NCBI GenBank assembly: GCA_937921255.1 | Contig: CAKZSO010000013.1 | Location: 45,495-109,494 of the forward strand | Length of the DNA stretch: 64,000 nt | From: Candidatus Bipolaricaulota bacterium | Lineage (GTDB): Bacteria; Bipolaricaulota; Bipolaricaulia; Bipolaricaulales; Bipolaricaulaceae | Direction of reading: 5' to 3' | Part shown: one piece after another, positions 13,202 through 59,649 of the stretch | Position numbering within the stretch: position 1 is the stretch's first letter | How the letters are laid out: each line of letters opens with the position of its first letter | Made by a program: the position numbers and the translations under genes | The notes under the pieces: model-generated | The model's input: only the letters and a program-made list of their open reading frames with translations | What the model was told of the DNA's origin: nothing | Databases searched by the model: none

Positions 13202-13207
13202 TAAGAT
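13202..13207 (+). promoter_or_regulatory. TAAGAT -10 box, leaderless spacing (N6) to dnaB
   Basis: TAAGAT ends exactly 6 bases before the GTG of dnaB, so transcription would begin at or next to the start codon. No Shine-Dalgarno is present in the 6 bases. Confidence 0.6.
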
Positions 13208-13213
13208 CGTCCC

Positions 13214-14587
13214 GTGGCCGACCGAGGAGATGAGGGGATCCTCCACGTCCCGCGGAACCAGGAGGCGGAACAGCTCGTCCTGGGCTCGGCTCTGCTCGAG
13301 CCGGAGGAGGTGGTCCCCACGCTTGCCGACCGGCTCAAGCCCGAGCACTTCTACTTCCGGGCCCACCAGCTCATCTACCGCACCGTCCTCGACCTGTTCG
13401 AGGAGGGAGAGCACGGGGACGTGGTGGCGGTGGCCAACCGGTTGGAGGAGAGGGGCCAGCTCGCCAAGGCCGGCGGCCGCAGCTATCTCGCCGAGCTGAT
13501 CGGCCAGGTCACCACGACCACCGCAGTCGAGCACTACGCGGGGATTATCGAGGAGAAGGCCCTCCGCAGGTGGCTCATCGACGCCGGGGGGCGGGTGTCC
13601 GAGCTCGCCTACCAGGAGGACCTCCCCCTGGAAGGGGTGATGGACCGGGCCGAGGAGGCGGTGTTCGCGATCGCCGAGCGCCGCTCGGCCCCCAGCTTCT
13701 ACCCAATCCGGGACTTCCTGGAAGGGCACCTCGAGATGCTCATGGAGGTCCACAAGGACCCCCACCGCCGGCCGGTGGCGGCCCTGTCCACGGGGTTTGA
13801 GGAGTTCGACGCCTTGACGTCCGGGTTTCGGCGCTCCGACCTGATCGTCCTTGCGGGCCGGCCCGGGACGGGCAAGTCCTCGCTTGCCCTGGGGATCCTC
13901 CGCCACGCCGCGGTTGCCGAGAAAAAGAAGGTGGGCCTGTTCTCGCTCGAAATGACCAAGGAGCAGATTCTGGAGCGCCTCCTGTGCGCGGAAGCCCAGG
14001 TGGACCTCCAGCGGCTGCGGGATGGGTACCTCCCGGCGTCGAAGTGGGGCCTGATCGCCGAGGCCGCGGGCCGCCTCCACGACGCGGTGATCCTCATCGA
14101 CGACGCATCCACCGCCTCCGTCCTCTCGATCAAGGCCAAGGCCCGGCAGATGATGAAGCGCTACGACGGCCTGGACCTCGTGGTGGTGGACTACCTCCAG
14201 CTCGTGGACGCGGGGATCAAGACCGACGTCCGGGAACAGCAGATCGCCTACATCTCGAGGGCCCTCAAGGCCCTCGCCCGCGAGCTCGCGGTCCCCGTGA
14301 TCGCCTGCTCCCAGCTCAACCGGGCCGTCGAGCGGCGGGAGTCGAAGCGGCCCCAGCTCTCCGACCTCCGGGAGTCGGGGGCGATCGAGCAGGACGCTGA
14401 CCTCGTCGTGTTCATCTACCGCCCCGACTACTACGACGACCCCGACCAGACCGGCCCGGTGGCGGAGACGGAAGTGATCATCGCCAAACAGAGAAACGGA
14501 CCGCTGGGGAAGTTCCGGCTCATGTTCCACAAGAGCTCGGCCACGTTCTACTCCCCAGCCCAGCAGGGACAGGTTGTCCCGTTCTAA
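13214..14587 (+). CDS. dnaB: Replicative DNA helicase DnaB
   Basis: Hexameric 5'-3' helicase at the replication fork. It has 457 residues. The N-terminal DnaB domain ([29 protein letters not shown]) is followed by the RecA-like domain with Walker [13 protein letters not shown], the LFSLEM motif, Walker [21 protein letters not shown] and the terminal [14 protein letters not shown] and IIAKQRNGP motifs. The GTG start has a leaderless-type -10 box directly upstream. A gene coding for the glycine-cleavage H protein follows 11 bases later, an unusual operon partner. Confidence 0.96.
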
Positions 14588-14598
14588 AAGGAGGAAGG

Positions 14599-14982
14599 TT
14601 GATCCCGAAGGAGCTCAAGTACACCCAAGATCACGAGTGGATACGATTGGAAGGGGATAAGGCCTGGGTGGGCATCACCCACCACGCCCAGGGGCAGCTT
14701 GGGGACATCGTGTTCGTCGAGCTCCCCCCGGTGGGGAAAAGGGTTCAACGCGGGAGCCAGATTGCGACAGTGGAATCGGTGAAGGCGGTGGGGGAGGTGT
14801 TCGCGCCGCTGAGCGGCGAGGTCGTGGAGGTGAACCCCGTCCTCGCAGGCTCCCCCGACCTCGTGAACAAGGACCCCTACGGCCAGGGTTGGCTCTTCGC
14901 CCTCCGGCTGGCCGATCCCCAAGAAGTGGGCGGGCTCCTCGACGCCACCGCTTACGAGGCGTTTGTGGGGAGCGGCGGATGA
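14599..14982 (+). CDS. gcvH: Glycine cleavage system H protein
   Basis: Lipoyl carrier that shuttles the aminomethyl group between P and T proteins. It has 127 residues with YTQDHEWIR at the N-terminus, GDIVFVELPPVG, and the lipoylated Lys in ATVESVKAVGEV (about K62). It starts with TTG at 14599 preceded by a very strong AAGGAGGAAGG, 0-4 bases from the start. It overlaps gcvPA by 4 bases. No gcvT or lipoamide dehydrogenase is present in the window. Confidence 0.95.
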   Translation: MIPKELKYTQDHEWIRLEGDKAWVGITHHAQGQLGDIVFVELPPVGKRVQRGSQIATVESVKAVGEVFAPLSGEVVEVNPVLAGSPDLVNKDPYGQGWLFALRLADPQEVGGLLDATAYEAFVGSGG

Positions 14983-16304
14983 ACCCCTACCTCCCCCACA
15001 CCCCTGACGATATCCGGGAGATGCTGGCCACGGTCGGCGTTCCCGACCTAGACGCCCTGTTCGCGGACATTCCCCCCGAGGTACAGCGCCGCAACCGCCC
15101 GCTGGGCCTCGGGGGCCACGACGAGCAGGCCGTCCACGGGCACTTGACTTCCCTCGCCGAGCGCTCGACCGGCCACCGGCTGGTCCCGTTCCTGGGGGGA
15201 GGGGTCTACGACCACTTCGTCCCGGCCGTGGTCGGTCACATCCTCTCCCGCGCCGAGTTCTACACCGCCTACACCCCCTACCAGCCCGAGGTCTCGCAGG
15301 GAACCCTGACCTGGATGTTCGAGTACCAGACGATGATCTGCGAGCTCACGGGGATGGAGGTGGCCAACGCCTCGATGTACGACGGGGCGACCGCCCTCGC
15401 CGAGGCCGTCCTCATGGCCCATCGAGCGACAGGGGGGAGAACCGTCCTCATCCCCCGCTCGCTCAACCCCCACCTGCGCGAGGTGGTCGCCACCTACGCG
15501 TGGGGAGCCGGCCTCACCGTGGCGGAGGTCCCCTACGACGCGCACGGCCGACTCTCCCTCAACGGGATCCCCCCCAATGCCTGCGCCCTCATCGTGCAAC
15601 AACCGAACGCCCTCGGGGTCCTGGAGGACCTGGCAGGACTCAAGGATCGCCTTGGGAAGGCGTTCCTCATCGCGGCGGCGAATCCGATCGCCCTGGCCGT
15701 GGTCGAGCCCCCGGGCGCGTTCGGGGCCGACGTGGTCGTCGGTGAAGGGCAACCGCTGGGGAACCCCGTTGCGTTCGGCGGTCCGTTGTTGGGGTTCTTC
15801 GCGACACGGATGGAGCACCTGCGGCGGATGCCCGGCCGCGTGTCGGGGCAGACCCATGACCTCGACGGGAAGATTGGGTACGTGATGACCTTCCAGACCC
15901 GCGAGCAACACATCCGGCGCGAGGGGGCAACGTCGAACATCTGCACCAACTCCGCCCTGTGCGCCCTGGCGGCCACGGTGTACCTCGCCGCCCTCGGGCC
16001 GGGAGGGCTGAGGCGGGTGGCGCTCCTCTCCTACGAGCGGGCCCACGCGCTTGCAGATCAAATCGCCACGATCCCCGGCTACAGCCTCGCCTTGGCGGGG
16101 CCGTTCTTCCACGAGTTCGTCGTCCGCTGCGCGAACCCGGAGGCCGCAGTCGAGCGGCTCCGTCGGGAGGGGATCGCCGTCCTCCCCCCCAGCTTCCTCC
16201 ACCCCCTCGGGGTTCGCGACGGGTTCCTCGTCGCCGTGACCGAAAAGCGCACCCCCGAGGAACTGGACCGCTTTGTCTCCGCACTGAGAAGGAAGGACCG
16301 ATGA
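14979..16304 (+). CDS. gcvPA: Glycine dehydrogenase (decarboxylating) subunit 1
   Basis: N-terminal half of the split P protein. It has 441 residues opening with MNPYLPHTPDDIREML, then FLGGGVYDHFVPAVVGHI, YTPYQPEVSQGTLTWMFEYQTMICELTGMEV, NASMYDG and, late, TREQHIRREGATSNICTNSALCAL. I use the ATG at 14979, overlapping gcvH, and not the upstream track start. It forms an alpha2beta2 complex with GcvPB; this subunit lacks the PLP lysine. It overlaps gcvPB by 4 bases. Confidence 0.96.
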   Translation: MNPYLPHTPDDIREMLATVGVPDLDALFADIPPEVQRRNRPLGLGGHDEQAVHGHLTSLAERSTGHRLVPFLGGGVYDHFVPAVVGHILSRAEFYTAYTPYQPEVSQGTLTWMFEYQTMICELTGMEVANASMYDGATALAEAVLMAHRATGGRTVLIPRSLNPHLREVVATYAWGAGLTVAEVPYDAHGRLSLNGIPPNACALIVQQPNALGVLEDLAGLKDRLGKAFLIAAANPIALAVVEPPGAFGADVVVGEGQPLGNPVAFGGPLLGFFATRMEHLRRMPGRVSGQTHDLDGKIGYVMTFQTREQHIRREGATSNICTNSALCALAATVYLAALGPGGLRRVALLSYERAHALADQIATIPGYSLALAGPFFHEFVVRCANPEAAVERLRREGIAVLPPSFLHPLGVRDGFLVAVTEKRTPEELDRFVSALRRKDR

Positions 16305-17743
16305 CCACGATCTACGACCAGGGCAGACCGGGCCGGCGGGCCGTTTCCCTGCCCGAGCCCTCCCACCCGGAAGCAGAGATCCTGGACTCCATCCCGACCG
16401 ACCTCCGCCGGCGGACGCCGCCCCGGCTGCCCGAGGTGTCCCAGCCCGAGCTCATCCGCCACTACACCGCCTTGTCCCGGATGAACTACGGGGTGGACAC
16501 AGGGTTCTACCCGTTGGGCTCGTGCACGATGAAGCACAACCCCAGGCTCCACGAAGACCTCGCCCGGCTGCCGGGGTTTGCGGGGCTCCACCCCCTCCTC
16601 CCCGCCGAAGAGTGCCAGGGCGCGCTCGCCCTGCTCTGGGAGATGGGCGAGTACCTAAAGGGGATCACCGGAATGCCGGGGATCACCCTCCAGCCCGCGG
16701 CCGGGGCCCACGGGGAGCTGACGGGAATGCTCCTCTTTAAGAAGTGGCTCGAGGACCGCGGCGAGCTCGGGGCGCGCACGAAGATCCTCCTCCCCGACTC
16801 CGCGCACGGGACGAACCCTGCATCCGCAGCGATGGTCGGGTTCTCGGTCGTCTCCATCCCCTCCGACCGCCGGGGGATGGTCGACCTCAACGCCCTAAAG
16901 CAGGCTCTGGGCCCCGACGTGGCGGGGATCATGCTCACCGTGCCCAACACCCTGGGGATCTTCGAGGAGGATATCCTCACGATCACCCAGCTCGTCCACA
17001 ACGCGGGCGGGCTGTGCTACTTCGACGGGGCAAACCTCAACGCCTACCTCGGCCGGGCCCGGCCGGGAGACATGGGGGCCGATGTGTTCCACATCAACCT
17101 CCACAAGACCTTCTCCACCCCCCACGGCGGGGGCGGACCCGGAGCGGGACCAGTGACCGTGTCCGAGGCGCTCGTTCCCTACCTCCCCGTGCCGGGGATC
17201 GCCCGCGGAGAAGAAGCGTACCATCTCGATTGGAACAAGCCGAAGACGATCGGGCGGGTCCACCCCTACTTCGGGAACGTGCTCGTGATCGTGCGCGCCC
17301 TCGCCTACCTCCTCACCTTGGGCGACGCCGGGATGCGCGAGGTGTCCGGCGGGGCGGTGCTCGCCGCCAACTACCTCAAGGCGAAGCTCAAGGGCACGTA
17401 CAAGCTCCCCTACGACCGGCTCGTCAAGCACGAGTTCGTCCTCTCCGGCGAAGGGCTGGGCCATGGGCTACGAACGCTCGACGTTGCCAAGCGGCTGATG
17501 GACTACGGGTTCCATCCCCCGACGGTCTACTTCCCGCTCATCGTCAAGGAGGCCCTGATGATCGAGCCCACCGAGACCGAGCCGCGGGAGACCCTCGACG
17601 CGTTCGCCTCTGCGCTCGTTGCCATCGCCGCCGAGGCCCGGGAGAGGCCGGAGCTCCTCCGCGAGGCGCCCCACACGGCCCCAGTCCGCCGGCTCGACGA
17701 AGCCAATGCGGTGCGGGAACCCAAGCTCAGGCTGGACCTGTAG
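16301..17743 (+). CDS. gcvPB: Glycine dehydrogenase (decarboxylating) subunit 2
   Basis: PLP-bearing half of the P protein: decarboxylates glycine and loads the aminomethyl group onto GcvH. It has 480 residues. Diagnostic blocks are NYGVDTGFYPLGSCTMKHNP, LQPAAGAHGELTGML, DSAHGTNPASAAM, and the PLP lysine in HINLHKTFSTPHGGGGPG (about K269). The track ORF begins too early at 15959; ATG 16301 overlaps the gcvPA stop. It is the last gene of the dnaB/gcv cluster and converges on the glmM pseudogene remnant with no clear terminator. Confidence 0.96.
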   Translation: MTTIYDQGRPGRRAVSLPEPSHPEAEILDSIPTDLRRRTPPRLPEVSQPELIRHYTALSRMNYGVDTGFYPLGSCTMKHNPRLHEDLARLPGFAGLHPLLPAEECQGALALLWEMGEYLKGITGMPGITLQPAAGAHGELTGMLLFKKWLEDRGELGARTKILLPDSAHGTNPASAAMVGFSVVSIPSDRRGMVDLNALKQALGPDVAGIMLTVPNTLGIFEEDILTITQLVHNAGGLCYFDGANLNAYLGRARPGDMGADVFHINLHKTFSTPHGGGGPGAGPVTVSEALVPYLPVPGIARGEEAYHLDWNKPKTIGRVHPYFGNVLVIVRALAYLLTLGDAGMREVSGGAVLAANYLKAKLKGTYKLPYDRLVKHEFVLSGEGLGHGLRTLDVAKRLMDYGFHPPTVYFPLIVKEALMIEPTETEPRETLDAFASALVAIAAEARERPELLREAPHTAPVRRLDEANAVREPKLRLDL

Positions 17744-17752
17744 GAACCCCGC

Positions 17753-18810
17753 CTAGCTGGGGCGGCGCTCGGGACGGCATCCGGACTCGCCGAGAACCGT
17801 CTGAACGCAAAGCGGATCAAGGGGCTGGCAGACCCGGGTTACAACGCGGCGGAGGATCGCCTCGTCCGGGCCCTCGGCAAACAGCGGATGAGGGGTTGGG
17901 TCCCCGACGGCCGGACGATCTCCTCCCGTTGCGGTGCCCCACCGGAACAGGGACGACGCGAAACCCGTGGTCAAGGAGGTGCCGCTCCGCGCCCGTGTTC
18001 GCGAGTACGGTGAACACGACCGACCGCCACCCGATCTCCCCCCAGACCCGACGAGCGGGGCGAGGGCGGCGATCAACCGGTCCCCCTCAACCACCTGGCC
18101 CCGACTGTCCACCCACATGACCCGATCGCCGTCGCGGTCGAAGGCGATTCCAAGGTCGGCCCTCTCCCTCGGCACCACCTGCTCTAGCAGGTCGGAGGGC
18201 CGCGGCCCCCGTCCGGTTGATCCACGCCCCGTCGGGTTCGGCGCCGAGGAGCACGAGGTCCGCCCCGAGGTCCCAAAACACGTCCGGAGCAACCACGGCT
18301 GTCGCCCCGTACGCCCGGTCAACCGCGATCCGCATCCCCGCAAGCGACAAGTTGGAACGGCCTCCCGCAGGAACGTTCGGTAGACGTCTTCCGCACCGGT
18401 GAGATGGGCAATCCTCCCGCGCCGCCCGGGTTGCGGGGGGACCCCGACGAGCGCTTCCACCGCCTCCTCTTCCTCCGGAGAGAGCTTCGGGCCATGCCAG
18501 TCACAGAACCTAATCGCGTTGTCGGGAGGCGGGTTGGGGGAGGCCGCGTCACCACCCCGAGGTCGTACTCCCCGGAGGCGGACGAGTGAGCGACACTGCA
18601 GGCAACGGGAAGACCGCGCCGTGCACCACGTCCACACCGGCCGCGGCGAGGCCTTGCCCGCACACCCACTTGAGCTCCGGACCCGAGAGCCGCGTGTCCC
18701 AGGCCAGAAACGCGGTCCGGGCCCCGCGCCAGCTCCGCGGTGAGATTCACCCCGGCCACACCGCGCACCCCGTCCGTCCCCAACAGCCGCAGCGCCCTAG
18801 TCCCGGACAA
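17753..18810 (-). pseudogene. glmM: Degenerate phosphoglucosamine mutase (glmM-like)
   Basis: No single frame is open, but family motifs appear in the right order across all three minus frames. They are LLGTDGVRGVAGVNLTAEL (18.8 kb), WDTRLSGPELK with GLAAAGVDVV (18.7 kb), ASPNPPPDNAIRF with PKLSPEEEEAVE (18.5 kb), GMRIAVDRAYGATA with DLGADLVLLGAEPDG (18.3 kb), the metal loop GIAFDRDGDRV (18.15 kb), and FTVLANTGAERHLLDHG (18.0 kb). At least five frame changes are needed. The active-site signature ASHNP reads ASPNP, and the C-terminal phosphate-binding domain (RxSGTEP) is missing. A functional enzyme would convert glucosamine-6-phosphate to glucosamine-1-phosphate. It overlaps the trkH 3' end by 14 bases, so it was once cotranscribed. 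Confidence 0.9.
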
Positions 18811-20266
18811 ACAGGAGCCCCCGCAGGAGCATCAGGACGGGGATGATCTCCAGCCGACCGACCCACATGTTGAACGCGAGGATGATCTTGGCCGCGGTCG
18901 GCATGGTGGAGCGGGTGATCCCCACTGACAGCCCGACGTTGCCCTGGGCCGAAGCAACTTCGAACAGGAGATCGGCCAGTCGGGCGTCGGGGTAGACGAG
19001 CCACGAGAGGAGGAGGACCCCCAGGAGAAGGAAGAACAGCCACAGCGTCGCCAGAACCGCCGCCTCCCCCAAGCGGCGGAACGCGGCGGACTCGGCCAAA
19101 GCCTGCCCCCCCAGCCGAAGGGGGATGAGCGCGTCCGGAGATCGGGCCAGCCGCCGAAGCTGCCAGCCCGCACCCCGCACGAGGAGGAGAAAGCGCATCA
19201 CCTTGATCCCCCCCGCCGTCGAACCGGCCGCCCCCCCGATCACCATCCCGACAACGAGGATCAGCTTCGAGGCCTCGGACCACGATCGGAGGTCCGACGT
19301 CTGAAACCCTGCACAGGTAAGCGCAGAGGTGAACTGAAACACCCCCCCACGGAACGCGGCCGCTGCCGACACCCTCCCCAGCTGGCCGAGGGCGAGGAGA
19401 ACCGTCCCCCCAAGCACGAGCCCCAACAGCGCCCGCGTCTGGGGGTCGGAGGTCAGGGTCCGCGGACCGTGCTGGAACATGTGGTAGTGCACCACGAAAC
19501 TGATCGCCCCCGCAACCATGACGACGACCATCACGAGCTCGATTGCAACAGAGTTGTAGCGCCCAATCGACTCCGGCCAGATCGAGAACCCGCCCGTCGC
19601 GACCCCGGTCATCGCGTGGTTGAGGGCGTCCCAAAGAGGCATCCCCGCTCCCCACAGCCCCGCGACCGCGAGGAACGTGTAAAGGAGGTAGATCCACCAC
19701 ATCGTGCGCACGGTGGAAAGCACCGACGGATGGATCTTCTCCCCCCGGGCCTCGGCGAAGTAGAGGTTGGCCGCAGTCATCCCGGGGCCGGTGATGAGGG
19801 TGATCATGAGGACGATCACCCCGATCCCCCCCACCCACTCCATGAACGACCGCCACCACTGGAGCGTTCGCGGGAGGAGGTCCGGCCGTTGGGCCATCGA
19901 GAGACCCGTGCCGGTGAACCCAGAGACGCTTTCAAACAAGGCGCTGGCCGGGTCGGCGTAGGGAGAGCCTACCAGGTCCGCCGAAGAGAGAAGGAGGGGA
20001 AGGGAACCCAGAGCCGCAACGACGAGCCAGCCCACCGCGGCCACCGTGAGGCCGTGCTTGAGCCGGGCCTCCCCGGACTGCCGAAACGGGAGGTAGAGGA
20101 CGGCCCACACCCCGAGGGAGGCGACAGCCGTCCACCCCAGCGATCCCAGGAGTTGTCCTTCGCCGAAGAGGATCGCCACGGGGAAGGAGAGAAGGGCCAT
20201 CACCCCGACCACGGGGGCGAGGAGTCCCACGTCGCGCAGGACGATCCGCAGGTCCTTGGTTCCCAT
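18797..20266 (-). CDS. trkH: Trk-type K+ uptake channel subunit
   Basis: K+-translocating membrane protein, 489 residues with four M1-P-M2 units. The pore loops are visible as SVSGFTGTGLS, MTGVATGGFS, ALTCAGFQTSD and ASAQGNVGLSVGIT, with the filter glycines. TAGGIKVMRFLLL in the third unit is typical of TrkH/KtrB. It starts 4 bases after trkA, the NAD-binding regulator. K+ import with membrane potential or Na+/H+ coupling is expected. Confidence 0.95.
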   Translation of the reverse strand: MGTKDLRIVLRDVGLLAPVVGVMALLSFPVAILFGEGQLLGSLGWTAVASLGVWAVLYLPFRQSGEARLKHGLTVAAVGWLVVAALGSLPLLLSSADLVGSPYADPASALFESVSGFTGTGLSMAQRPDLLPRTLQWWRSFMEWVGGIGVIVLMITLITGPGMTAANLYFAEARGEKIHPSVLSTVRTMWWIYLLYTFLAVAGLWGAGMPLWDALNHAMTGVATGGFSIWPESIGRYNSVAIELVMVVVMVAGAISFVVHYHMFQHGPRTLTSDPQTRALLGLVLGGTVLLALGQLGRVSAAAAFRGGVFQFTSALTCAGFQTSDLRSWSEASKLILVVGMVIGGAAGSTAGGIKVMRFLLLVRGAGWQLRRLARSPDALIPLRLGGQALAESAAFRRLGEAAVLATLWLFFLLLGVLLLSWLVYPDARLADLLFEVASAQGNVGLSVGITRSTMPTAAKIILAFNMWVGRLEIIPVLMLLRGLLFVRD

Positions 20267-20270
20267 CGGC

Positions 20271-20933
20271 CTAGCCCGTGAGCTGTTCGATCGCCGACTG
20301 GGAGATGTGGCCCTTCGTGAACACGGTCACGTTGTCCCCCGCGCGGATGACCGTGCCCCCCGAGGGGATCACGAGGTCCCCCTCGCGCTCGACGGCGGCG
20401 ATGAGAAGGCCATCCGGTATTAGACCCCCTTTCCCCGCCTCACGAAGGGTGAGGTTGACGAGGGGCGACTGGTCGGTGATCGTGATCCGGAACACCTGCG
20501 CCCCCCCCGGCAGCGCCACCAGGTCGCGGACGTGGGGGTGCCACGCCGAGTGGTAGAGGTAACCCGCGACGATGACGTCGGGGTTCTCCATCACGTGAGC
20601 GCCGAGGCGGCGGAAGAGGTCTGTGTGCTCCGGGTTGTTGACCACCGACACGATCGTCGGGACACCGAGGTCCCCGGCGGCGGCGATGACCATCAAGTTC
20701 GTCGCGTCGTCGTGGGTCGTGGCGATGAGGGCATCGGCCCGCTCGGCGCCCGCCTCGCGGAGGATGTCCGCGGAGGCCGCATCGGCGTTGAACACCAGCA
20801 CGTCGTACCGGCGGATGATCGTCTCGGCCTTTTTGGGGTCCCGCTCGATGACCGCCACGTTGTGCCGGTCGCGCACCGCGAGGTCGATGATCGCAGACCC
20901 GATCCCACCCGCCCCCACGACGATCAGGTACAT
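20271..20933 (-). CDS. trkA: Trk-type K+ uptake regulatory subunit (TrkA/KtrA)
   Basis: Cytosolic RCK protein gating TrkH. It has 220 residues with a single RCK_N Rossmann domain (MYLIVVGAGGIGSAIIDLA; VIERDPKKAE; TTHDDATNLM) and a single RCK_C domain (TLREAGKGGLIPDGLLIAAVEREGDLVIP). It is therefore the half-size form and not the duplicated E. coli TrkA. I use the ATG at 20933; the track ORF to 21569 is a shadow of trmY. Upstream a TACCAT box lies 8 bases before the start. Divergent from trmY. Confidence 0.94.
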   Translation of the reverse strand: MYLIVVGAGGIGSAIIDLAVRDRHNVAVIERDPKKAETIIRRYDVLVFNADAASADILREAGAERADALIATTHDDATNLMVIAAAGDLGVPTIVSVVNNPEHTDLFRRLGAHVMENPDVIVAGYLYHSAWHPHVRDLVALPGGAQVFRITITDQSPLVNLTLREAGKGGLIPDGLLIAAVEREGDLVIPSGGTVIRAGDNVTVFTKGHISQSAIEQLTG

Positions 20934-20999
20934 AGGCTCGCATGGTACCGCTCGGGGTTCGGGCGGTCCAACCGGCTTGGCGCCCCGAACAGGGACTGT

Positions 21000-21005
21000 T
21001 AGCAT
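21000..21005 (+). promoter_or_regulatory. TAGCAT -10 box, leaderless spacing (N6) to trmY
   Basis: TAGCAT ends 6 bases before the GTG at 21012. The start region has no Shine-Dalgarno complement at a usable distance. Confidence 0.55.
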
Positions 21006-21011
21006 GAGGGG

Positions 21012-21599
21012 GTGCGGACGTTCGTGATGGTCAGCCACACCGTGCCCCTCGATGGGGAGTTCTCCCTCTCCGACCTCCCCGGCGGGGCGGGGCGGCTCGA
21101 CGTCCTGTGCCGGGCAGCGAACGACGCGTTCCTCGTCTCCCACGGGATCCGCAAGGAGGTCGCGCTTCACTTTGTGATTCGCGACCAGATCACGATCAGC
21201 CTGTGGGGACCTCGGCTCCGGCACCTCAACCCCGACGAGCGATCCACCGGGGCCCTGTTTCGCGAGGCGTTGCGAGCGGGCCTCGATCTCCCCGTCGGGG
21301 AAGAGCGGCCATCCACCCCGGGGATCACCGTGCGCCGCATCGGACTCGCGGGGCTTCTGGACGACCTTCGCACCGCAGGGAACGCGCCGGTAGTTCTCGA
21401 CGAGGGCGGGGATCCGCTGCGTACAGCACTCATTCCCGAACAAGCGGCGTTCATCCTCTCCGATCACCAGAACTTCACGCCCGCCGAGCACGCCCTCCTC
21501 GCCGGCCTGCCCCGCGTTTCCGTCGGGCCACGGGTGCTCCAGGGACACCAGTGCATCACGCTCGTCCACAACGAGCTCGATCTACGGGAGGCAGGATGA
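21012..21599 (+). CDS. trmY: TrmY-like SPOUT methyltransferase (COG1901)
   Basis: A 195-residue protein matching the TrmY family, which in archaea methylates N1 of pseudouridine-54 in the tRNA T-loop. Family blocks run the full length: VSHTVPLDGEFSLSDLPGGAGRLDVLCR at the N-terminus, FLVSHGIRK, RHLNPDERSTGAL, then STPGITVRR and the C-terminal SPOUT-knot region ILSDHQNFTPAEHALL ... SVGPRVLQGHQCITLVHNELD. The family is mainly archaeal, with scattered bacterial homologues. The gene is otherwise ordinary in composition and heads a trmY-DUF2007-pcm-ltaE overlapping operon. Activity on Psi54 in this bacterium is inference. Confidence 0.85.
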   Translation: MRTFVMVSHTVPLDGEFSLSDLPGGAGRLDVLCRAANDAFLVSHGIRKEVALHFVIRDQITISLWGPRLRHLNPDERSTGALFREALRAGLDLPVGEERPSTPGITVRRIGLAGLLDDLRTAGNAPVVLDEGGDPLRTALIPEQAAFILSDHQNFTPAEHALLAGLPRVSVGPRVLQGHQCITLVHNELDLREAG

Positions 21600-23576: not shown

Positions 23577-23602
23577 CGTAGCCTCCATCACGTGAGGCTA
23601 CG
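23577..23602 (+). promoter_or_regulatory. 9-bp perfect hairpin abutting a start codon and enclosing its RBS
   Basis: CGTAGCCTC (23577-23585), an 8-base loop and GAGGCTACG (23594-23602) form a perfect 9-bp stem. The ATG of the next gene starts at the very next base. The only Shine-Dalgarno-like sequence (GAGG) is inside the 3' arm. It could be an RNA switch that hides the ribosome site or, as DNA, a protein operator. Confidence 0.6.
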
Positions 23603-24346
23603 ATGCGTCTGATCGGTGCAGGTCTTGCGGTGGTGGGAGTATGCGTCGCGGGCAGCGCAATGTCGCTCTCGATCGCCTCGTCGGCGCACGGGGTGTGGTT
23701 CGACCTCCCCAGCCTGAACCAGTTCGTTCGCCTCACCAACCAGACCCTCGCCTTCGTGAACGAGCGATCCGGAGGTGATCCCGTTCCCCCCCTGCCCGAG
23801 CTCCGCCACGGCGTCGGGCTGAAGCTGGCCGAGGCCCTCGGGGGGATCGTGCGGGTGGGGATCCAGATGGCGGTAACGAGCGTTGCCACCCGCACCCAGG
23901 GCGCGTGGACAGCGGGAGAGACGTCGCACCCGGTGGACATCTCCCTCGAGGCAAGCCTGGTCGCGTTCTCGGTCGAGCTCTCGCTCGTCCTCATCCCGGA
24001 CGTCCTCACGGCGGGGGTCTCCGTCGGGGGAGGAGTATCCCGAATTCTTTACCGATCAGCGTTTCCTCGTAATCTGCCCACCGACTGGTCGCTCCCCTTC
24101 CTGCCCAAGAACGAGGACACGGCCTACACCGGAAGCGGGCCGCTGGGAACGATTGCCCTCGGGCTATCGCTCCCCCTCGGGCAGGGGATCGCCGTCGGGA
24201 TCGAAGCCGGGTTCCGGGTCGCCCCACCGTGGGTTCCGACCTCCGGCAGCGCCGTTCTAGACCTTAACGCCGACGGGATGGGCGACCCCGTGTGGTTCAC
24301 CGGCCTCTGGCTCGGGGTCATGGTTCGCATGGAGTTCAACCTGTGA
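23603..24346 (+). CDS. Exported protein, possible outer-membrane barrel
   Basis: A 247-residue protein with a Sec-type signal (MRLIGAGLAVVGVCVAGSAMS). The mature part is beta-rich and ends in VWFTGLWLGVMVRMEFNL, with alternating hydrophobics and an aromatic/leucine end resembling a C-terminal barrel strand. Gly-rich strands such as GTIALGLSLPLGQGIAVGIEAGF also fit a small outer-membrane beta barrel. No catalytic motif. It leads a three-gene envelope cluster with two PKD lipoproteins. Family not recognised. Confidence 0.65.
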   Translation: MRLIGAGLAVVGVCVAGSAMSLSIASSAHGVWFDLPSLNQFVRLTNQTLAFVNERSGGDPVPPLPELRHGVGLKLAEALGGIVRVGIQMAVTSVATRTQGAWTAGETSHPVDISLEASLVAFSVELSLVLIPDVLTAGVSVGGGVSRILYRSAFPRNLPTDWSLPFLPKNEDTAYTGSGPLGTIALGLSLPLGQGIAVGIEAGFRVAPPWVPTSGSAVLDLNADGMGDPVWFTGLWLGVMVRMEFNL

Positions 24347-27237: not shown

Positions 27238-27243
27238 ATTATA
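27238..27243 (-). promoter_or_regulatory. TATAAT -10 box, leaderless spacing (N6)
   Basis: A perfect TATAAT on the minus strand ends 6 bases before the GTG at 27231. This implies a transcript whose first codon is at the 5' end. No SD precedes the GTG. Confidence 0.65.
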
Positions 27244-29489: not shown

Positions 29490-29495
29490 TACCCT
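29490..29495 (+). promoter_or_regulatory. TACCCT -10 box, leaderless spacing (N6) to osmC
   Basis: TACCCT ends 6 bases before the ATG at 29502, which supports that start over the track start at 29484. Confidence 0.5.
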
Positions 29496-34798: not shown

Positions 34799-34804
34799 TA
34801 GCAT
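34799..34804 (+). promoter_or_regulatory. TAGCAT -10 box, leaderless spacing (N6) to the MurE-type gene
   Basis: TAGCAT ends 6 bases before the ATG at 34811, and no Shine-Dalgarno is present. The same hexamer precedes trmY at the same distance. Confidence 0.6.
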
Positions 34805-36830: not shown

Positions 36831-36836
36831 AGCCTA
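36831..36836 (-). promoter_or_regulatory. TAGGCT -10 box, near-leaderless spacing (N7) to coaE
   Basis: TAGGCT on the minus strand ends 7 bases before the coaE ATG. The same hexamer and spacing precede mutY. A GGGGAG in the gap could also act as a weak SD. Confidence 0.5.
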
Positions 36837-39287: not shown

Positions 39288-39293
39288 ACTATA
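39288..39293 (-). promoter_or_regulatory. TATAGT -10 box, leaderless spacing (N6)
   Basis: TATAGT on the minus strand ends exactly 6 bases before the ATG at 39281. The intervening bases carry no SD. Confidence 0.6.
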
Positions 39294-44452: not shown

Positions 44453-44458
44453 TAGGCT
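44453..44458 (+). promoter_or_regulatory. TAGGCT -10 box, near-leaderless spacing (N7) to mutY
   Basis: TAGGCT ends 7 bases before the ATG at 44466. Same hexamer and spacing as coaE. No SD. Confidence 0.5.
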
Positions 44459-47339: not shown

Positions 47340-47341
47340 CG

Positions 47342-49883: not shown

Positions 49884-49889
49884 CATAAT
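49884..49889 (+). promoter_or_regulatory. CATAAT -10-like box, near-leaderless spacing (N7)
   Basis: CATAAT ends 7 bases before the ATG at 49897; one mismatch from TATAAT at position 1. Confidence 0.4.
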
Positions 49890-50781: not shown

Positions 50782-50908
50782 CCCCGATCGCGGAGCAAGC
50801 CATGGGGACTGCCAACGAACCCCTGGGCACCTCCGGAGACCCGCGCCGGTCTGGCCGGACAGTTGGCGCAGCGGATCGCTGCCGCTAGAGTAGCGGGGTG
50901 AGCCGCTC

Positions 50909-51889: not shown

Positions 51890-51917
51890 GCCGCCAGGCC
51901 ACACCCACAGTTCAACG

Positions 51918-52298
51918 CTACCGCCGGCGGGTGGGGAGGCGGAGGATGTGCCACGACACGCCCAAAGCAACCGCCGCGAGGAGCAGGCGCATCCAGGTCG
52001 CCTGGGCGACGAACGTCGCCGAGATCGCCACCGAGCCCCAGATGATTGCGAGCGTCCCCGCCTTCCACGTCCAGGGAAGGCCCCGCCCGTCCTCGTAGTC
52101 GCGAAGGCACCGGCCAAACAGCCGGTTCCCACGGAGCCAACGGTGAAGCCGCGGCGAACTGCGGGCAAAGAGCCACGCGGCGAGGAGGAGGAACGGCGTG
52201 GCCGGAACGACCGGGAGGATCCAGCCGATGACCGCCAGCCCGACGCAGAGGAGCCCGCACGCGGTGAGGATCAGGCGCCGGACGCGGGGAGAGGCCAC
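51918..52298 (-). CDS. YbaN/DUF454 family inner-membrane protein
   Basis: A 126-residue protein with two N-terminal TM segments (LILTACGLLCVGLAVIGWILP; LLLAAWLFARSS) and two later ones. The DUF454 signature LPVVPATPFLLLAAWLFARSSPRLHRWL, NRLFGRCLRDYEDGRGLP is present. Function unknown. GTG start 5 bases after the upstream glycosyltransferase-like gene, so an operon. Confidence 0.88.
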   Translation of the reverse strand: MASPRVRRLILTACGLLCVGLAVIGWILPVVPATPFLLLAAWLFARSSPRLHRWLRGNRLFGRCLRDYEDGRGLPWTWKAGTLAIIWGSVAISATFVAQATWMRLLLAAVALGVSWHILRLPTRRR

Positions 52299-52303
52299 GC
52301 CCG

Positions 52304-53440: not shown

Positions 53441-53558
53441 CGGACGGGGACTATACGCGGACCGAGCTCGCTCGGGCAACCTCCCGGGCCAAGGAAACGT
53501 TCCCCAAGAGCTGCGGAGACGAGGAGCGGGGCGGAAAGACGGCTCAGGAGTCTGCTTC

Positions 53559-53635
53559 TGGTCGGAGCGAGCGGATTTGAACCGCTGACCCCTGGCCCCC
53601 CATGCCAGTGCGCTACCATGCTGCGCCACGCTCCG
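53559..53635 (-). tRNA. tRNA-Pro (anticodon GGG)
   Basis: Minus-strand cloverleaf with 7-bp acceptor stem CGGAGCG/CGCTCCG, D arm GGCGCAGCATGGTAGCGC, and anticodon stem CTGGC/GCCAG around ATGGGGG (anticodon GGG). The T arm is AGCGG TTCAAAT CCGCT, and CCA is encoded. It begins about 120 bases upstream of the glycosyltransferase start on the same strand. Confidence 0.94.
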
Positions 53636-53752
53636 CCGCAAGGGATGGTATCGTCCCCGCCACCCCGCGCCAACCCTCCCGCCGGAACGGACGGCCGCTG
53701 CCCTGGTAGGCACTCCCCCTCGCGGTTATGCTGATTCGCACTGGAGCTTGGG

Positions 53753-56488
53753 ATGACACACGACGCCGATCAACCATGGCACGCGGTTCCCAACGATGAG
53801 CTTCTCCGGAGGTTGGGCACCGGCGACGAGGGCCTGCGGACCGCCGAGGTTGCCCGCCGGCGGGAGGAGTTCGGCCCCAACGCGCTGGATGGCGAGGCGC
53901 CGATCACCCCCCTCCAGGTCCTCGCCCACCAACTCCACCACCCGCTGATCTACCTCCTCCTCGGTGCGGCCGGGGTGTCGGTCCTCGCCGGCCACGCCGT
54001 CGACGCGATCATCATCGGGGGCGTGGTCGTTGTGAACACGCTTCTCGGGGCGGTGCAGGAGTGGCGGGCGGACAAGGCGCTGGAGACCCTGCACCGCATG
54101 GCCTCCCCCCACGCCCAGGTCCGTCGCGACGGGAAGGTCGTGGAGGTGAACGCCGATGAGGTCGTCCCCGGCGACATCCTCCTCCTAGAGACGGGGCACC
54201 GCGTGGCAGCGGACGCCCGCGTGCTCGACGCCGCCGACCTCATCGTGGACGAGTCTGCCCTCACCGGGGAGAGCGAGCCGGTGGCCAAGGCGCCCGGTGT
54301 CCTCCCCAAGGAGACCCCGCTTGCCGACCGGACGAACATGGTGTGGTCCTCCACCGCTGTCGCCGGGGGCCGCGGGACCGCCGTGGTCGTCGCAACCGGG
54401 ATGCGCACCGCCCTGGGAGGGGTGGCGGCCCAGGTGCGGGAGACCGGACGGGAGCAGACTCCGCTCCAGCGGCGCCTGGCCCGGCTAGGCACGGTGCTCG
54501 GCCTCGCGGGGATCGGCCTCGCGGGTCTGGTGTTCCTGATCGGCCTTCTGCGGGGCTTCGCCTGGCTGGAGATGGTCTTGTTCTCGGTGGCCGTGGCCGT
54601 GTCAGCGATCCCGGAAGGGCTCCCGGCGGTGATCAGCATCACCCTCGCCCTCGGCGTGCAGCGGATGGCCCGCCGCCACGCGATCGTCCGTCGTCTCCCC
54701 GCGGTGGAAACCCTCGGCTCGACAACCGTCATCTGCTCGGACAAAACGGGCACGATCACCCGCAACGAGATGACGGTGACCGCCCTGTGGACGCGCCGGG
54801 GGACCCACGAGGTCACGGGGTCGGGATTTGACCCGTCCGGGGAGATCCGCCCGGCGGACGGGGCCGAGGGAACCGACCCCGCAGTGCCGCTTCTTCTTGA
54901 GATCGGCGCCTTGTGCAACAACGCCCAGCTTGGGGAGGAGGGCGGGGCGTGGCGGGTGCAGGGCACCCCCACCGAGGGGGCGCTCGTTGTCGCCGCCCGC
55001 AAGGGCGGGATCCACCCCAAGCGCCCCCGCCTGGGCGAAATCCCGTTCTCGAGCGACCGAAAGTACATGGCCACCCTCCACCCAGCGGAGACGGGGACGG
55101 TCGCGCTGGTGAAGGGGGCCCCGGACCGCCTGCTCGCCTTCTGTGCCCGGATTCAAGATGGGGACGCGGTCCGCGACCTCACAGACAACGATCGGCGGGA
55201 GATCGAGGCGGCGATCGACACGTTCGCCGGCCGGGCGCTGCGGGTCGTGGCCGGCGCCCGGCGGGAGTTCCCCGACGGAAGGGATCGCTTGGACGAGGGG
55301 GACGTGGAGGAGGGGCTGACGTTCGTTGGGCTGTGGGGGATGGTCGACCCGCCGCGGCCGGAGGCGATTCAGGCGGTCGCCGATGCCCAGCGGGCGGGGA
55401 TCCGCGTGGTGATGATCACCGGGGACCACAAGGCCACCGCCGCGGCGATTGCCCGCGAGGTGGGGATCATCGCCCACGGTGAGGAGGTGATCACCGGGGC
55501 CGAGCTCGACGCGATGGCGGACGAGGAGCTCGCGCAACGGGTAGAGCACGTTGGGGTGTTCGCCCGCGTGACCCCAGCCCACAAGCTGCGCATCCTCCAG
55601 GCCCTCAAGGCCCGCGGCGAGATCGTGGCGATGACTGGCGACGGGGTGAACGACGCCCCGGCCCTCAAGGGAGCGGACATCGGCGTGGCAATGGGCAGGA
55701 CCGGAACCGAGGTCGCCAAGGCGTCTGCGGACATGATCCTCACCGACGACAACTTCGCCACGATCGTCCACGCCGTGGAGGAGGGGCGGGTCATCTTCGC
55801 CAACCTGCGCCGGGTGGTGTACTTCCTCATCACGACGAACCTCGGGGAGATCCTCACCCTGACCGCGGCGCTCGTCGTCGGGCTGCCGCTCCCGCTCACG
55901 GCGATCATGATCCTCTGGATCAACCTCGTCACCGACGGGGCGTGTACGATCCCGTTGGGGATCGAGCCCAAGCATCGGGACGTGCTGCTCGGGCCGCCCC
56001 GGCCGCCGCGGGAGGGTGTGCTCCACCTGCCGGTGGTGCGGCGGATGGCCCTCCTCGCCCCGGTGATGGCGGCGGGGACGCTCGGGCTGTTCGCCCACGA
56101 GCTCCGCACAGGCACCGTCGAGCACGCGATGACGGTGGCGTTCGCGGTTCTCGCCGCGTTCCAGTGGTTCCAGGCCCTCAACGCCCGCTCCAGCCGCCTA
56201 TCGGTCCTGTCCGTGGGGCTGTTCACCAACCGGGCGCTGTGGATCGGGATCAGCGTCGCGGTGGCGCTGCAGCTCCTCGTGATCTACACCCCGGTGGGGC
56301 GGACCATGTTCGGCACGGTGCCCCTCACCGCAGTGGATTGGGTCAAGATTCTGGCCGTGGGGGGCTCGATTCTCCTCGTCGACGAGGCCCTCAAGGCCCT
56401 CGGCGTTCACGGAAAGCGGCCGTCGTCTCTCGGCCGGGGGCCCCACGGGGCGCCCGCCGGCGGGGGCCGGGGCGGGTCTTCTCCGTAG
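53753..56488 (+). CDS. P-type cation (Ca2+-type) ATPase
   Basis: A 911-residue P2-type ATPase (PMCA/SERCA/Na-pump-like). The N-terminal cation_ATPase_N domain (PWHAVPNDELLRRLGTGDEGL) is followed by the actuator DEVVPGDILLLETGHRVAADAR with TGES (ALTGESEPVAK). TM4 contains AVSAIPEGLPAVISI, and the phosphorylated Asp D330 is in CSDKTGTITRNEM. KGAPDRLL in the N domain and TGDGVNDAPALKGADIGVAMG complete the core. The C-terminal domain has NLVTDGACTIPLGIEPK and ends in a Gly/Arg-rich tail. Ca2+ export is likely, Na+ possible. GGAG SD. Confidence 0.94.
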   Translation: MTHDADQPWHAVPNDELLRRLGTGDEGLRTAEVARRREEFGPNALDGEAPITPLQVLAHQLHHPLIYLLLGAAGVSVLAGHAVDAIIIGGVVVVNTLLGAVQEWRADKALETLHRMASPHAQVRRDGKVVEVNADEVVPGDILLLETGHRVAADARVLDAADLIVDESALTGESEPVAKAPGVLPKETPLADRTNMVWSSTAVAGGRGTAVVVATGMRTALGGVAAQVRETGREQTPLQRRLARLGTVLGLAGIGLAGLVFLIGLLRGFAWLEMVLFSVAVAVSAIPEGLPAVISITLALGVQRMARRHAIVRRLPAVETLGSTTVICSDKTGTITRNEMTVTALWTRRGTHEVTGSGFDPSGEIRPADGAEGTDPAVPLLLEIGALCNNAQLGEEGGAWRVQGTPTEGALVVAARKGGIHPKRPRLGEIPFSSDRKYMATLHPAETGTVALVKGAPDRLLAFCARIQDGDAVRDLTDNDRREIEAAIDTFAGRALRVVAGARREFPDGRDRLDEGDVEEGLTFVGLWGMVDPPRPEAIQAVADAQRAGIRVVMITGDHKATAAAIAREVGIIAHGEEVITGAELDAMADEELAQRVEHVGVFARVTPAHKLRILQALKARGEIVAMTGDGVNDAPALKGADIGVAMGRTGTEVAKASADMILTDDNFATIVHAVEEGRVIFANLRRVVYFLITTNLGEILTLTAALVVGLPLPLTAIMILWINLVTDGACTIPLGIEPKHRDVLLGPPRPPREGVLHLPVVRRMALLAPVMAAGTLGLFAHELRTGTVEHAMTVAFAVLAAFQWFQALNARSSRLSVLSVGLFTNRALWIGISVAVALQLLVIYTPVGRTMFGTVPLTAVDWVKILAVGGSILLVDEALKALGVHGKRPSSLGRGPHGAPAGGGRGGSSP

Positions 56489-56501
56489 GGCAGGAGGTCG
56501 G

Positions 56502-57953
56502 ATGATCGGGGTCAGCGTGGCGGTGGGGGTCGTAGGCGGGCTGGCAGGGGTTGCCGTGGCGCGCGCGCTTCGGCTGCGGGCCGAGCAACCAGGGGAACCG
56601 GTGAACGCACCGCCCGTGGACGCAGGGCAGCTCGCCGAACACCTCGCGGCGGCGATCCGCTGCCCGACGATCTCCCATCAGGACCCGGCCCAGTTTGATC
56701 CCCGGCCGTTCGCCGAGCTCCGCGGCGCCCTCGAGCGGGCGTTCCCCCGCCTCCACGCGACGCTCAGGCGGGAGACCGTGTCCGAGCACAGCCTCCTCTA
56801 CACCTGGGAGGGCGCCGACCCCTCGCTCCGCCCGGCCCTCCTCATGGGCCACCTCGACGTCGTCCCGGTCGAGGCGGGGGCGGAGAAGCACTGGACCCAC
56901 CCGCCCTTCTCTGGGGCGATCGCGGACGGGTTCGTGTGGGGCCGGGGAACGCTCGACACGAAGGGGAGCGTGGTGGCGATCCTCGAGGCGGTGGAGACCC
57001 TCCTCGAACAGGGGTTCCGTCCCCGGCGCACGGTGTACCTCGCGTTCGGGCACGACGAGGAGGTCTCCGGACGTCGTGGGGCAAAGGTGATGGCTGACCT
57101 CCTCCGCTCCCGGGGCGTTGAACTGGAATGGGTGGTCGACGAGGGGGGAGCGATCCTCGCCGAGGGTTCCGTGTCCGGGGTCCGGGCACCGGTGGCGCTG
57201 GTCGGGGTGGCGGAGAAGGGCTACCTCACCCTCCGCCTCACCGCCGAGGGCCAGGGGGGCCACTCGGCGATGCCGCCCCGGAACACCGCGGTCAGGAGGC
57301 TCGCGCGGGCGGTCGAGCGCCTAGAGCGTCACCCCTTCCCGCCCCAGCTTCGCGAGCCGACGCTTGAGCTCCTCGCCGCCACCGCCCCGCAGATGCCGTT
57401 CGCGAGGAAGCTCGCCCTCGCCAACCTCTGGCTCAGCGGACCGTTCGTGGCCTGGACCATGGCACGGAACCGGACCACCGCCGCCCTCGTCCGGACCACC
57501 GCTGCGGTGACGGTCCTCCAGGCTGGGACGAAGGAGAACGTGGTCCCTCAAACCGCCCAGGCGACGGTCAACCTGCGCCTGCTCCCTGGCGAGTCGGTGG
57601 AGACAGTCCTCGCCCGCGTGCGGCGGGTTCTGGGGCCGGAGGTGTGCGTCGAGCCGGCGTCCGAGGGGTGGAACCCGTCCCCGGTGAGCCCAACCGACGC
57701 CGAGGCATACCGCGCCCTCTCCCGCGTGGTCCGCGGGCTGTTTCCGGAGGCGGTCGTCGCCCCAAACCTCGTCGTCGGGGCCACCGACTCCCGCTACTAC
57801 GCCCCGATCGCCCAGAGCACGCTTCGGTTCGTTCCGATCACCCTCACGCGCGAGGACATGGGCCGGATCCACGGAACGGACGAGCGGATTTCGGTCGAAT
57901 CCCTCGTCCGGTGCGTGGCGTTCTTTGTCCGACTGATCGAGGAGGCAGCGTGA
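56502..57953 (+). CDS. M20-family metallopeptidase (carboxypeptidase S-like)
   Basis: 483 residues. An N-terminal membrane anchor (VSVAVGVVGGLAGVAVARAL) is followed by the M20 catalytic domain: LLMGHLDVVPV (metal His/Asp), DGFVWGRGTLDTKGS (bridging Asp), FGHDEEVSGRRGA (catalytic Glu-Glu) and a late NLVVGATDSRYY with the last metal His region. A dimerisation insert contains GQGGHSAMPPRN. Membrane-tethered dipeptidase or acylaminoacid hydrolase likely. It overlaps the GNAT gene by 4 bases. Confidence 0.91.
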   Translation: MIGVSVAVGVVGGLAGVAVARALRLRAEQPGEPVNAPPVDAGQLAEHLAAAIRCPTISHQDPAQFDPRPFAELRGALERAFPRLHATLRRETVSEHSLLYTWEGADPSLRPALLMGHLDVVPVEAGAEKHWTHPPFSGAIADGFVWGRGTLDTKGSVVAILEAVETLLEQGFRPRRTVYLAFGHDEEVSGRRGAKVMADLLRSRGVELEWVVDEGGAILAEGSVSGVRAPVALVGVAEKGYLTLRLTAEGQGGHSAMPPRNTAVRRLARAVERLERHPFPPQLREPTLELLAATAPQMPFARKLALANLWLSGPFVAWTMARNRTTAALVRTTAAVTVLQAGTKENVVPQTAQATVNLRLLPGESVETVLARVRRVLGPEVCVEPASEGWNPSPVSPTDAEAYRALSRVVRGLFPEAVVAPNLVVGATDSRYYAPIAQSTLRFVPITLTREDMGRIHGTDERISVESLVRCVAFFVRLIEEAA

Positions 57954-58740
57954 CAATCGCAGACCTGAACACAGATCTCGAGCCCCTGTACCGGGTGTGC
58001 CTCGAGGACTGGTCGCCCGAGATGAAGGGTGCCGGAGACCACAAGCGCCGTTGGTACGAGAAGATGAAGGACCACGGCCTGCGGGTGAAGGTGGCCCTCG
58101 ATGACCAGGGCGTGGCGGGCGGGATGATCCAGTACCTCCCGATCGAGCACTCCTTCGCTGAAGGAGAGGACCTGTACATGATCCTCTGCATCTGGGTCCA
58201 CGGGCACGCGGAGGGGCGGGGGAACTTCCAGGGGCAGGGGATGGGCCGGGCCCTCCTCCGCGCCGCGGAGGAGGACGCCCGCGCCCGCGGGGCAAAGGGG
58301 ATCGCGGCGTGGGGCGCGGATCTCCCGTTCTGGATGAGGGCCGAGCGGTTCCGGAACCACGGGTACCGCCAGGCTGATCGGATGGGCATCCAGGTCCTCG
58401 TGTGGAAGCCGTTCGCCCCAGATGCCGTTCCCCCACGGTGGATTCGAACGAAGAACCGCCCCGAGCCCGTCCCGGGCGTGGTGTCCGTGGTGGCGTTTGT
58501 GAACGGGTGCGGCCCGGCGATGAACCTCGTTGCCGAGCGGGCCCGCCGCGCCGCAGCCGGGTTCGGGGACCATGTGCGGTGCGAGATCGTGGACACCTCG
58601 GACCGGGCAACGTTCATCGCGGGGGGATCTCCGACGCCCTGTTCGTCGATGGCAGGGAAGTCCGCACCGGTCCGCCCCCGTCCGAGGAGGAGCTCCGTGC
58701 CCTCCTCGCCCGCCGGGTGCGGAAGCTCCCCCAGCCGTGA
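57950..58740 (+). pseudogene. GNAT + YoaP-like protein, frameshifted in a G-run
   Basis: GTG 57950 opens MTIADLNTDLEPLYRVCLED ... GNFQGQGMGRALLRAAEEDARARGAKGIAAWG, a GNAT domain (about 1-150) of the YoaP-like type. A thioredoxin-like tail follows (NRPEPVPGVVSVVAFVNGCGPAMNL). At 58621-58626 a GGGGGG run breaks the frame. One more G would continue as GISDALFVDGREVRTGPPPSEEELRALLARRV and end at 58740 (track ORF 58402-58740). As written the frame wanders to 58915 in low-complexity sequence. It overlaps the M20 stop. The cause may be a real mutation or a homopolymer sequencing error. Confidence 0.85.
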
Positions 58741-59046
58741 GACACCAGGGGCCCGAGGAGCACGGGATCTCAGACCTGAGCGCGCCCTGAGACCGCTGGG
58801 CACCTCGCCGGAAGGTCCACCACGAGGAGAGAGCCCCCTCTCCCCATCCTCGGGAGAGGACGAGGAGGCACACACGCTCACGCCGTACGGGCGAAGCGAT
58901 GAGCTGAACCAGTAGGGAGTGGTACGGAGAGAGGAACGGCCAATGCCTCGCCACAGGTGGGGTTCTCGGTGAGGGCGTCCACCAGGCGGGCCCCACACAT
59001 CGGGTCCCAGGTCTTGGGAACCTCAACCCAAACCGCGGAACAACCG
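58741..59046. other. 306-base intergenic region with a REP-like hairpin
   Basis: It contains CTCTCCC...GGGAGAG (58838-58858), the same stem as near 45519. On the minus strand next to tlpA there is a short open stretch (WVEVPKTWDPMCGARLVDAL) that might be a gene remnant, but it has no start, family or continuation I can support. No credible gene seen. Confidence 0.5.
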
Positions 59047-59637
59047 CTACAACCAGGGGGCGAGGACGGCGTCGGTCAGGCTCTCGGGGTGACCGATGAA
59101 CCGGATGATCCCCTGCCGATCGAGGAACACGGTCCGCGGAATGGATTCGATCCCAAACAGGTGGGCCACGGCCCTGGACTCGGAGAACGGGGCCCACAGG
59201 TTGATGAACCCGCGAATGCCGTGCGCCTCAAGGAACCGCGCCGCGTCCTCGCGCCGGTAGTCCAGGCTCACCGCCACCACCTTGAGCCCGAACGCCTGGT
59301 ACTTCTGGCGGAGGGCCTCGAGCTTGGGAACGGACACCTGGCACGGCTTGCACCAACTGGCCCAGAAATCGAGGACGACCGGGCAGCCCCGGAACGCGGA
59401 CAGGCTCACTGGGACTCCGGAGAAGTCGGGGAGGGCAAAGTCCGGGGCGCGTTGCCCAACCCCGTAGCCCACTTCGACGCCCGGGGACGATGGTGTGCTC
59501 CCAGGGGAGCAACCGGGCTCGGCCGCCCCCACAGGGGGCGGGAAGGCCCACAGCCCCCCCGCCAGGAAGACGCCGAAGGCCGCTAACCGAAACCCGATTG
59601 CGAATCTGCTCGTCCGCGGGGACCGTTCCCGGTTCAT
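59047..59637 (-). CDS. TlpA/ResA-like exported thioredoxin
   Basis: A 196-residue extracytoplasmic thiol-disulfide oxidoreductase. N-terminal signal/anchor about 10-38 (LAAFGVFLAGGLWAF), then APDFALPDFSGVPVSLSAFRGCPVVLDFWASWCKPCQVSVPKLEAL with redox centre WCKPC, and the cis-Pro loop GIESIPRTVFLDRQGIIRF. Two extra Cys (GCSPG; RGCPV) are outside the active site. The start is confirmed by a TAGCGT box 6 bases upstream. Likely cytochrome or protein disulfide reduction. Confidence 0.92.
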   Translation of the reverse strand: MNRERSPRTSRFAIGFRLAAFGVFLAGGLWAFPPPVGAAEPGCSPGSTPSSPGVEVGYGVGQRAPDFALPDFSGVPVSLSAFRGCPVVLDFWASWCKPCQVSVPKLEALRQKYQAFGLKVVAVSLDYRREDAARFLEAHGIRGFINLWAPFSESRAVAHLFGIESIPRTVFLDRQGIIRFIGHPESLTDAVLAPWL

Positions 59638-59643
59638 GGCCCA

Positions 59644-59649
59644 ACGCTA
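59644..59649 (-). promoter_or_regulatory. TAGCGT -10 box, leaderless spacing (N6) to tlpA-like gene
   Basis: TAGCGT on the minus strand ends exactly 6 bases before the ATG at 59637, with no SD between. Confidence 0.6.

What the first reader, a model, noticed from the sequence alone, without database searches (positions are those of the whole stretch)
13202..59649. Recurrent TAnnnT-N6/N7-start arrangement: widespread leaderless transcription
At least seven first genes have a TAnnnT box ending exactly 6 bases before the start codon: dnaB (TAAGAT), trmY (TAGCAT), the ATP-cone kinase (TATAAT), osmC (TACCCT), the MurE-type gene (TAGCAT), an intact GNAT (TATAGT) and the TlpA-like gene (TAGCGT). Four more have 7 bases: mutY, coaE, the HAD gene, and CATAAT before the C39-like gene. 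Most lack a Shine-Dalgarno. Genes with a strong SD (4783, gdhA, the ACT and Vgb/PEGA genes) carry the TAnnnT box about 20-30 bases upstream. In GC-rich sequence TAnnnT at a fixed distance should be rare, so two promoter/translation classes seem built in. The spacing also helps to choose starts.
Basis: partly seen in the sequence, partly recalled or inferred. Interest (0 to 1): 0.75.

Follow-up and report, generated by a model that had tools for sequence, protein, structure and literature searches.

The report
Leaderless promoters in Bipolaricaulota bacteria
In this uncultured, GC-rich bacterium many genes carry an ordinary sigma-70 promoter box only 6-9 bases before the start codon, so their messenger RNAs probably begin at or within about three bases of the protein start with no ribosome-binding leader; this is known from Deinococcus, Thermus and Actinobacteria, but I found no report of it for this phylum.

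Summary
All eleven boxes are in the sequence as stated. The genome is a Ca. Bipolaricaulota MAG. I called starts from coding potential alone. Over 442 first genes of three family genomes, TAnnnT occurs 49 times at spacing 6-7 against about 8 expected (P 4e-23), and is also in excess at 8-9. In 406 operon-internal genes there is no significant excess at 6-7 and a small one at 8-9. A motif search given no motif finds exactly two signals before first genes, AGGAGG and TA..aT, the same pair in Thermus, and no TA box in E. coli. Near boxes and SD exclude each other (P 9e-10), and a -35 TTG peaks 16-18 nt upstream of the boxes. Boxes are conserved in orthologues. For trkA, all 30 family loci have the box 8-12 nt from the start with no SD; 20 loci outside the family keep the promoter 20-39 nt upstream, 15 with an SD: the leader was probably lost. 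Best explanation: leaderless or near-leaderless sigma-70 transcription beside a leadered SD class. A known mechanism in a phylum for which I found no report; no RNA data.

The parts
13202..13207 (+). dnaB -10 box TAAGAT, 6 nt before GTG 13214
   Evidence: box kept in relatives L001-L011 by inspection of the aligned upstream sequences
21000..21005 (+). trmY -10 box TAGCAT, 6 nt before GTG 21012; -35 TTGGCG 17 nt upstream
   Evidence: no SD in 30/30 family loci, -35 at 17 nt in 28/30
27238..27243 (-). ATP-cone kinase -10 box TATAAT, 6 nt before GTG 27231
   Evidence: TATAAT kept in 29 of 30 family loci, TAATCT in the other, spacing 5-9
29490..29495 (+). osmC -10 box TACCCT, 6 nt before ATG 29502; -35 TTGATA 17 nt upstream
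   Evidence: all ten same-genus loci keep a box at 6 nt, many other genera have an SD leader instead
34799..34804 (+). MurE-type ligase -10 box TAGCAT, 6 nt before ATG 34811
   Evidence: a box 5-10 nt before an in-frame start in 25 of 30 family loci
39288..39293 (-). GNAT gene -10 box TATAGT, 6 nt before ATG 39281
   Evidence: orthologues not examined
59644..59649 (-). TlpA-like gene -10 box TAGCGT, 6 nt before ATG 59637
   Evidence: a box kept at 6-7 nt in same-genus loci with an intact 5' end
44453..44458 (+). mutY -10 box TAGGCT, 7 nt before ATG 44466
36831..36836 (-). coaE -10 box TAGGCT, 7 nt before ATG 36823
59927..59932 (+). box TACCAT, 7 nt before ATG 59940 (reader: HAD gene; product not tested here)
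49884..49889 (+). box CATAAT, 7 nt before ATG 49897 (reader: C39-like; product not tested here)
4754..4759 (+). leadered-class example: TATCAT 23 nt before ATG 4783, followed by AAGGAGG SD
   Evidence: conserved in relatives with a variable spacer

Best explanation
The boxes are -10 elements of ordinary housekeeping sigma-70 promoters placed directly against the coding sequence. RNA polymerase normally starts 6-7 nt after the -10 hexamer, so transcription would begin on the A/G of the start codon (spacing 6-7) or up to about 3 nt before it (spacing 8-9). The mRNAs are leaderless or nearly so and have no SD; translation presumably starts on the 5'-terminal AUG/GUG. A second class of first genes has the same kind of promoter about 15-39 nt upstream and an AGGAGG SD, and operon-internal genes use SD. 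Shown here: box excess and position, -35 partner, exclusion of SD, conservation, a conserved promoter with and without leader at trkA, canonical sigma-70 genes. Inferred: the transcription start itself and the mode of ribosome binding.
For: De novo motif mixture on first genes gives only AGGAGG and TA..aT in own, G005, G020 and (weaker) G070; Thermus pTT27 gives the same pair, E. coli does not; upstream shuffles destroy both. The own operon-internal set gives no TA motif. Spacing excess, mainly in first genes. -35 TTG at spacer 16-18 in 18 of 57 near boxes, about 0.8 per other position. Near box with SD 2/78 against 119/364, P 9e-10. Orthologue footprints. trkA: 30/30 family loci at spacing 8-12 without SD; 20 loci outside the family have the same -35/-10 at 20-39 nt, 15 of 20 with SD. 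Two sigma-70-type proteins in the own genome with the region 2.4 sequence YATWWIRQAI.
Against: No RNA 5' ends or proteome for this organism. Spacing 8-9 would give 1-3 nt leaders rather than strictly none. A small excess at 8-9 also occurs in operon-internal genes (8 against 1.5, P 1e-4), mostly in G020; it may be internal promoters or misassigned operons. Several boxes in the window lack a recognisable -35 (ATP-cone, MurE-type, GNAT, coaE, HAD, C39). Start calls are computational.
Confidence: 0.92

Rival explanations
1. Artefact of start choice and chance: a reader picked starts that happen to follow TAnnnT.
For: Start choice is free in GC-rich ORFs; one letter match in the window (23588-, 85 aa) looks like a chance product of a palindrome.
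Against: Excess persists with starts chosen by coding potential alone, is small or absent at operon-internal genes and absent for control motifs such as ATnnnT, and the boxes are conserved with spacing.
Confidence: 0.02
2. The boxes are real promoters but the starts are mis-assigned: translation begins at a downstream codon behind a short leader.
For: Some genes have several plausible starts; spacing 8-9 is common.
Against: Near-box genes lack SD (2/78); orthologous proteins align from the first residue for most trmY, trkA, osmC and coaE loci.
Confidence: 0.04
3. The TA-rich element is a translational signal (for example a ribosomal protein S1 site) and not a promoter.
For: PMC5397173 raises S1 binding for U-rich signals near -10.
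Against: The element has a -35 at a fixed 17 nt, is also found far from the start in SD genes, and at trkA the same -35/-10 pair stands before a leader outside the family.
Confidence: 0.02

Closest known systems
-10 region adjacent to ORFs in Deinococcus-Thermus (PMC12340547; de Groot 2014 cited there)
   Same: TANNNT about 6-7 bp before the ORF in about one third of genes, beside an RBS class; shown there to act as a -10 element; the same pipeline gives the same two motifs on Thermus pTT27
   Different: Here a different phylum; spacing 8-9 is also common; no expression data
TA-led genes of Zheng et al. 2011 (PMC3160421)
   Same: TAnnnT about 10 bp upstream of the start in high-GC bacteria, read as leaderless
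   Different: Bipolaricaulota is not in the list of groups quoted there; trkA and osmC here suggest gain of leaderless starts, whereas they infer a decreasing trend in evolution
Actinobacterial leaderless transcripts (Mycobacterium tuberculosis, PMC3898074)
   Same: Extensive leaderless transcriptome, paper also discusses TANNNT (only the search entry was seen)
   Different: Unrelated phylum, experimentally mapped there

Membership tests
Leaderless (TA-led) gene class | TAnnnT-type -10 at about 6-7 nt before the start codon, above chance | tested here: met
   49 against 7.8 expected, P 3.9e-23; also 8-9 nt
Leaderless (TA-led) gene class | No Shine-Dalgarno at these genes | tested here: met
   2/78 against 119/364, P 9e-10
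Leaderless (TA-led) gene class | Found at first genes, not inside operons | tested here: met
   no TA motif in the own operon-internal genes; pooled internal genes show no significant excess at 6-7 (4 against 1.5) but a small one at 8-9 (8 against 1.5)
Leaderless (TA-led) gene class | Primary transcript 5' end at the start codon | not testable with these tools
   no RNA data
Sigma-70 promoter | -35 TTGaca-like element about 17 nt from the -10 | tested here: met
   TTG peak at spacer 16-18 in 18 of 57; spacer 17 in 28/30 trkA loci; not every single gene has it
Sigma-70 promoter | A housekeeping sigma factor with the usual -10 contact region in the genome | tested here: met
   two sigma-70 proteins with YATWWIRQAI; residue contacts from general knowledge

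The most novel reading that the evidence does not exclude
Within Bipolaricaulota, single genes switched from leadered, SD-dependent to leaderless expression by loss of the short leader while the promoter stayed in place (trkA between families, osmC between genera), so that this family gained leaderless starts gene by gene rather than inheriting them; and the family uses an 8-9 nt spacing (near-leaderless mRNAs) more than Thermus does.
Probability: 0.55. Interest if true: 0.6.

Novelty: new member of a known kind. Interest (0 to 1): 0.48.

Why it matters
It extends abundant leaderless expression to a phylum for which I found no report in the open-access library searched (one paper holds both terms and makes no such link). 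It affects gene-start annotation in its MAGs. The trkA and osmC cases give direct comparisons of one promoter with and without a leader, which bear on whether leaderless starts are ancestral or gained.

Tried and rejected
A raw genome-wide count of TANNNTN6ATG is uninformative (59 against 50 for the reversed pattern) because background swamps it. Chance and start-choice artefact were rejected by controls. A loss of IF3 or KsgA/RsmA, which from general knowledge could favour leaderless translation, was considered: IF3 has a match in 37/40 family genomes and RrnaAD over its cut-off in 35/40, the own genome included in both, so there is no family-wide loss. Phylum-wide spread: G072 and G057 gave no TA motif; G053, G041 and G074 were too small to judge.

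Full report
What the window is. DnaB (13214-14587) is 95-65% identical to that of eleven MAG records, most of them labelled Candidatus Bipolaricaulota or Acetothermia. The genome held is a 1.29 Mb, 66-contig, 86% complete MAG, GC about 69%.

The observation. Scans of the window for TAnnnT plus 6 or 7 nt plus ATG/GTG/TTG return every gene on the list except the CATAAT case, which is present as written at 49884. Pfam confirms trmY, ATP-cone kinase, OsmC, Mur ligase, GNAT, MutY, CoaE and an AhpC/TSA (TlpA-like) protein. One more belongs: trkA on the minus strand. A naive longest ORF (20271-21569) runs antisense through trmY, but its Pfam domains begin at residue 216, in four of eight relatives the match begins only at residue 174-206, and the start at 20933 has TACCAT 8 nt before it. 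So trmY and trkA are a divergent pair with a box each.

Is it more than chance? I wrote a codon-usage gene finder that picks starts by coding potential only and never looks at signals. Own genome, 170 first genes: 19 boxes at spacing 6+7, 3.4 expected (P 3.7e-9). Three family genomes (own, G005, G020), 442 first genes: 26, 23, 12 and 19 boxes at spacing 6, 7, 8 and 9, about 3.9 expected at each; P 3.9e-23 for 6+7 and 2.9e-10 for 8+9. The 406 operon-internal genes have 4 at 6+7 (1.5 expected, P 0.06) and 8 at 8+9 (1.5 expected, P 1e-4), the latter mostly in G020; I do not know whether these are internal promoters. Five other three-letter control motifs showed no peak at 6 or 7 in the first-gene set.

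Two classes without telling the program. A mixture model that hides the start codon and learns two 6-mers from random seeds finds AGGAGG (4-7 nt) and TA..aT (6-9 nt) in own, G005, G020 and, weaker, G070; the same pair in Thermus thermophilus pTT27; an SD and an A-run in E. coli; no TA motif in G072 or G057; shuffled upstream regions lose both. In the own operon-internal genes it finds SD and no TA box. In the own genome 57 of 170 first genes are assigned a near box (11 nt or less) and 83 an SD. Near box and SD exclude each other: 2/78 against 119/364, P 9e-10. SD genes carry TAnnnT mostly 15-39 nt upstream, as the gene at 4783 does in its relatives.

It is a promoter. TTG occurs 3, 10 and 5 times at 16, 17 and 18 nt upstream of the 57 near boxes, and about 0.8 times at other spacers; this was not part of the model. 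The genome has five Sigma70_r4 matches and at least two sigma-70 proteins with YATWWIRQAI in region 2.4.

Conservation. By inspection of aligned upstream sequences, dnaB, trmY and trkA keep the box in relatives while flanks change. A box 5-10 nt before an in-frame start is present in 25 of 30 MurE-type loci and 30 of 30 ATP-cone loci (TATAAT in 29); mutY, coaE and tlpA keep it in most same-genus loci. osmC keeps it at 6 nt in all ten same-genus loci, while many loci of other genera have an AGGAGG-type leader. This script searched nearby in-frame starts for a box, so single hits can be chance.

A switch at trkA. In 30 of 30 family loci (10 genera by the handles) the box with the best -35 is 8-12 nt from the start (8 in 17, 9 in 10), with the -35 at 17 nt in 28 and 18 nt in 2, and no SD. 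In 20 loci outside the family the promoter, mostly TTGACC-17-TAnnnT, stands 20-39 nt from the start, and 15 have an SD-like 5-mer. The box was chosen by its -35 score.

Novelty. Leaderless genes with this signal are known from Deinococcus-Thermus, Actinobacteria and other groups. In the library searched, one paper holds both 'Bipolaricaulota' and 'leaderless' and does not link them. I therefore rate it a new member of a known kind. The transcription start and the ribosome's mode of binding remain inferred.

Noticed in passing
three family genomes (own, G005, G020): A second spacing peak at 8-9 nt (12 and 19 of 442 first genes) that Thermus pTT27 does not clearly show; in the own genome no in-frame start codon lies 3 nt before the starts assigned spacing 8-11 (0 of 26). 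Near-leaderless mRNAs or a longer discriminator; unexplained.
   Followed up: partly
window 23577-23602: Inverted repeat CGTAGCCTC...GAGGCTACG directly before the ATG at 23603; the left arm is kept in L004-L006. It also produces a probably false TAGCCT-N6-ATG on the minus strand at 23588.
   Followed up: no
L001 (DYGJ01000027.1): Record titled Thermotoga sp. isolate BE2012_65_8 encodes a DnaB 95% identical to this genome's and shares its gene order, so it looks like a Bipolaricaulota contig under a wrong name.
   Followed up: partly
G020 and own operon-internal genes: Small excess of TAnnnT at 8-9 nt before operon-internal starts (8 against 1.5 pooled); possible internal promoters.
   Followed up: no
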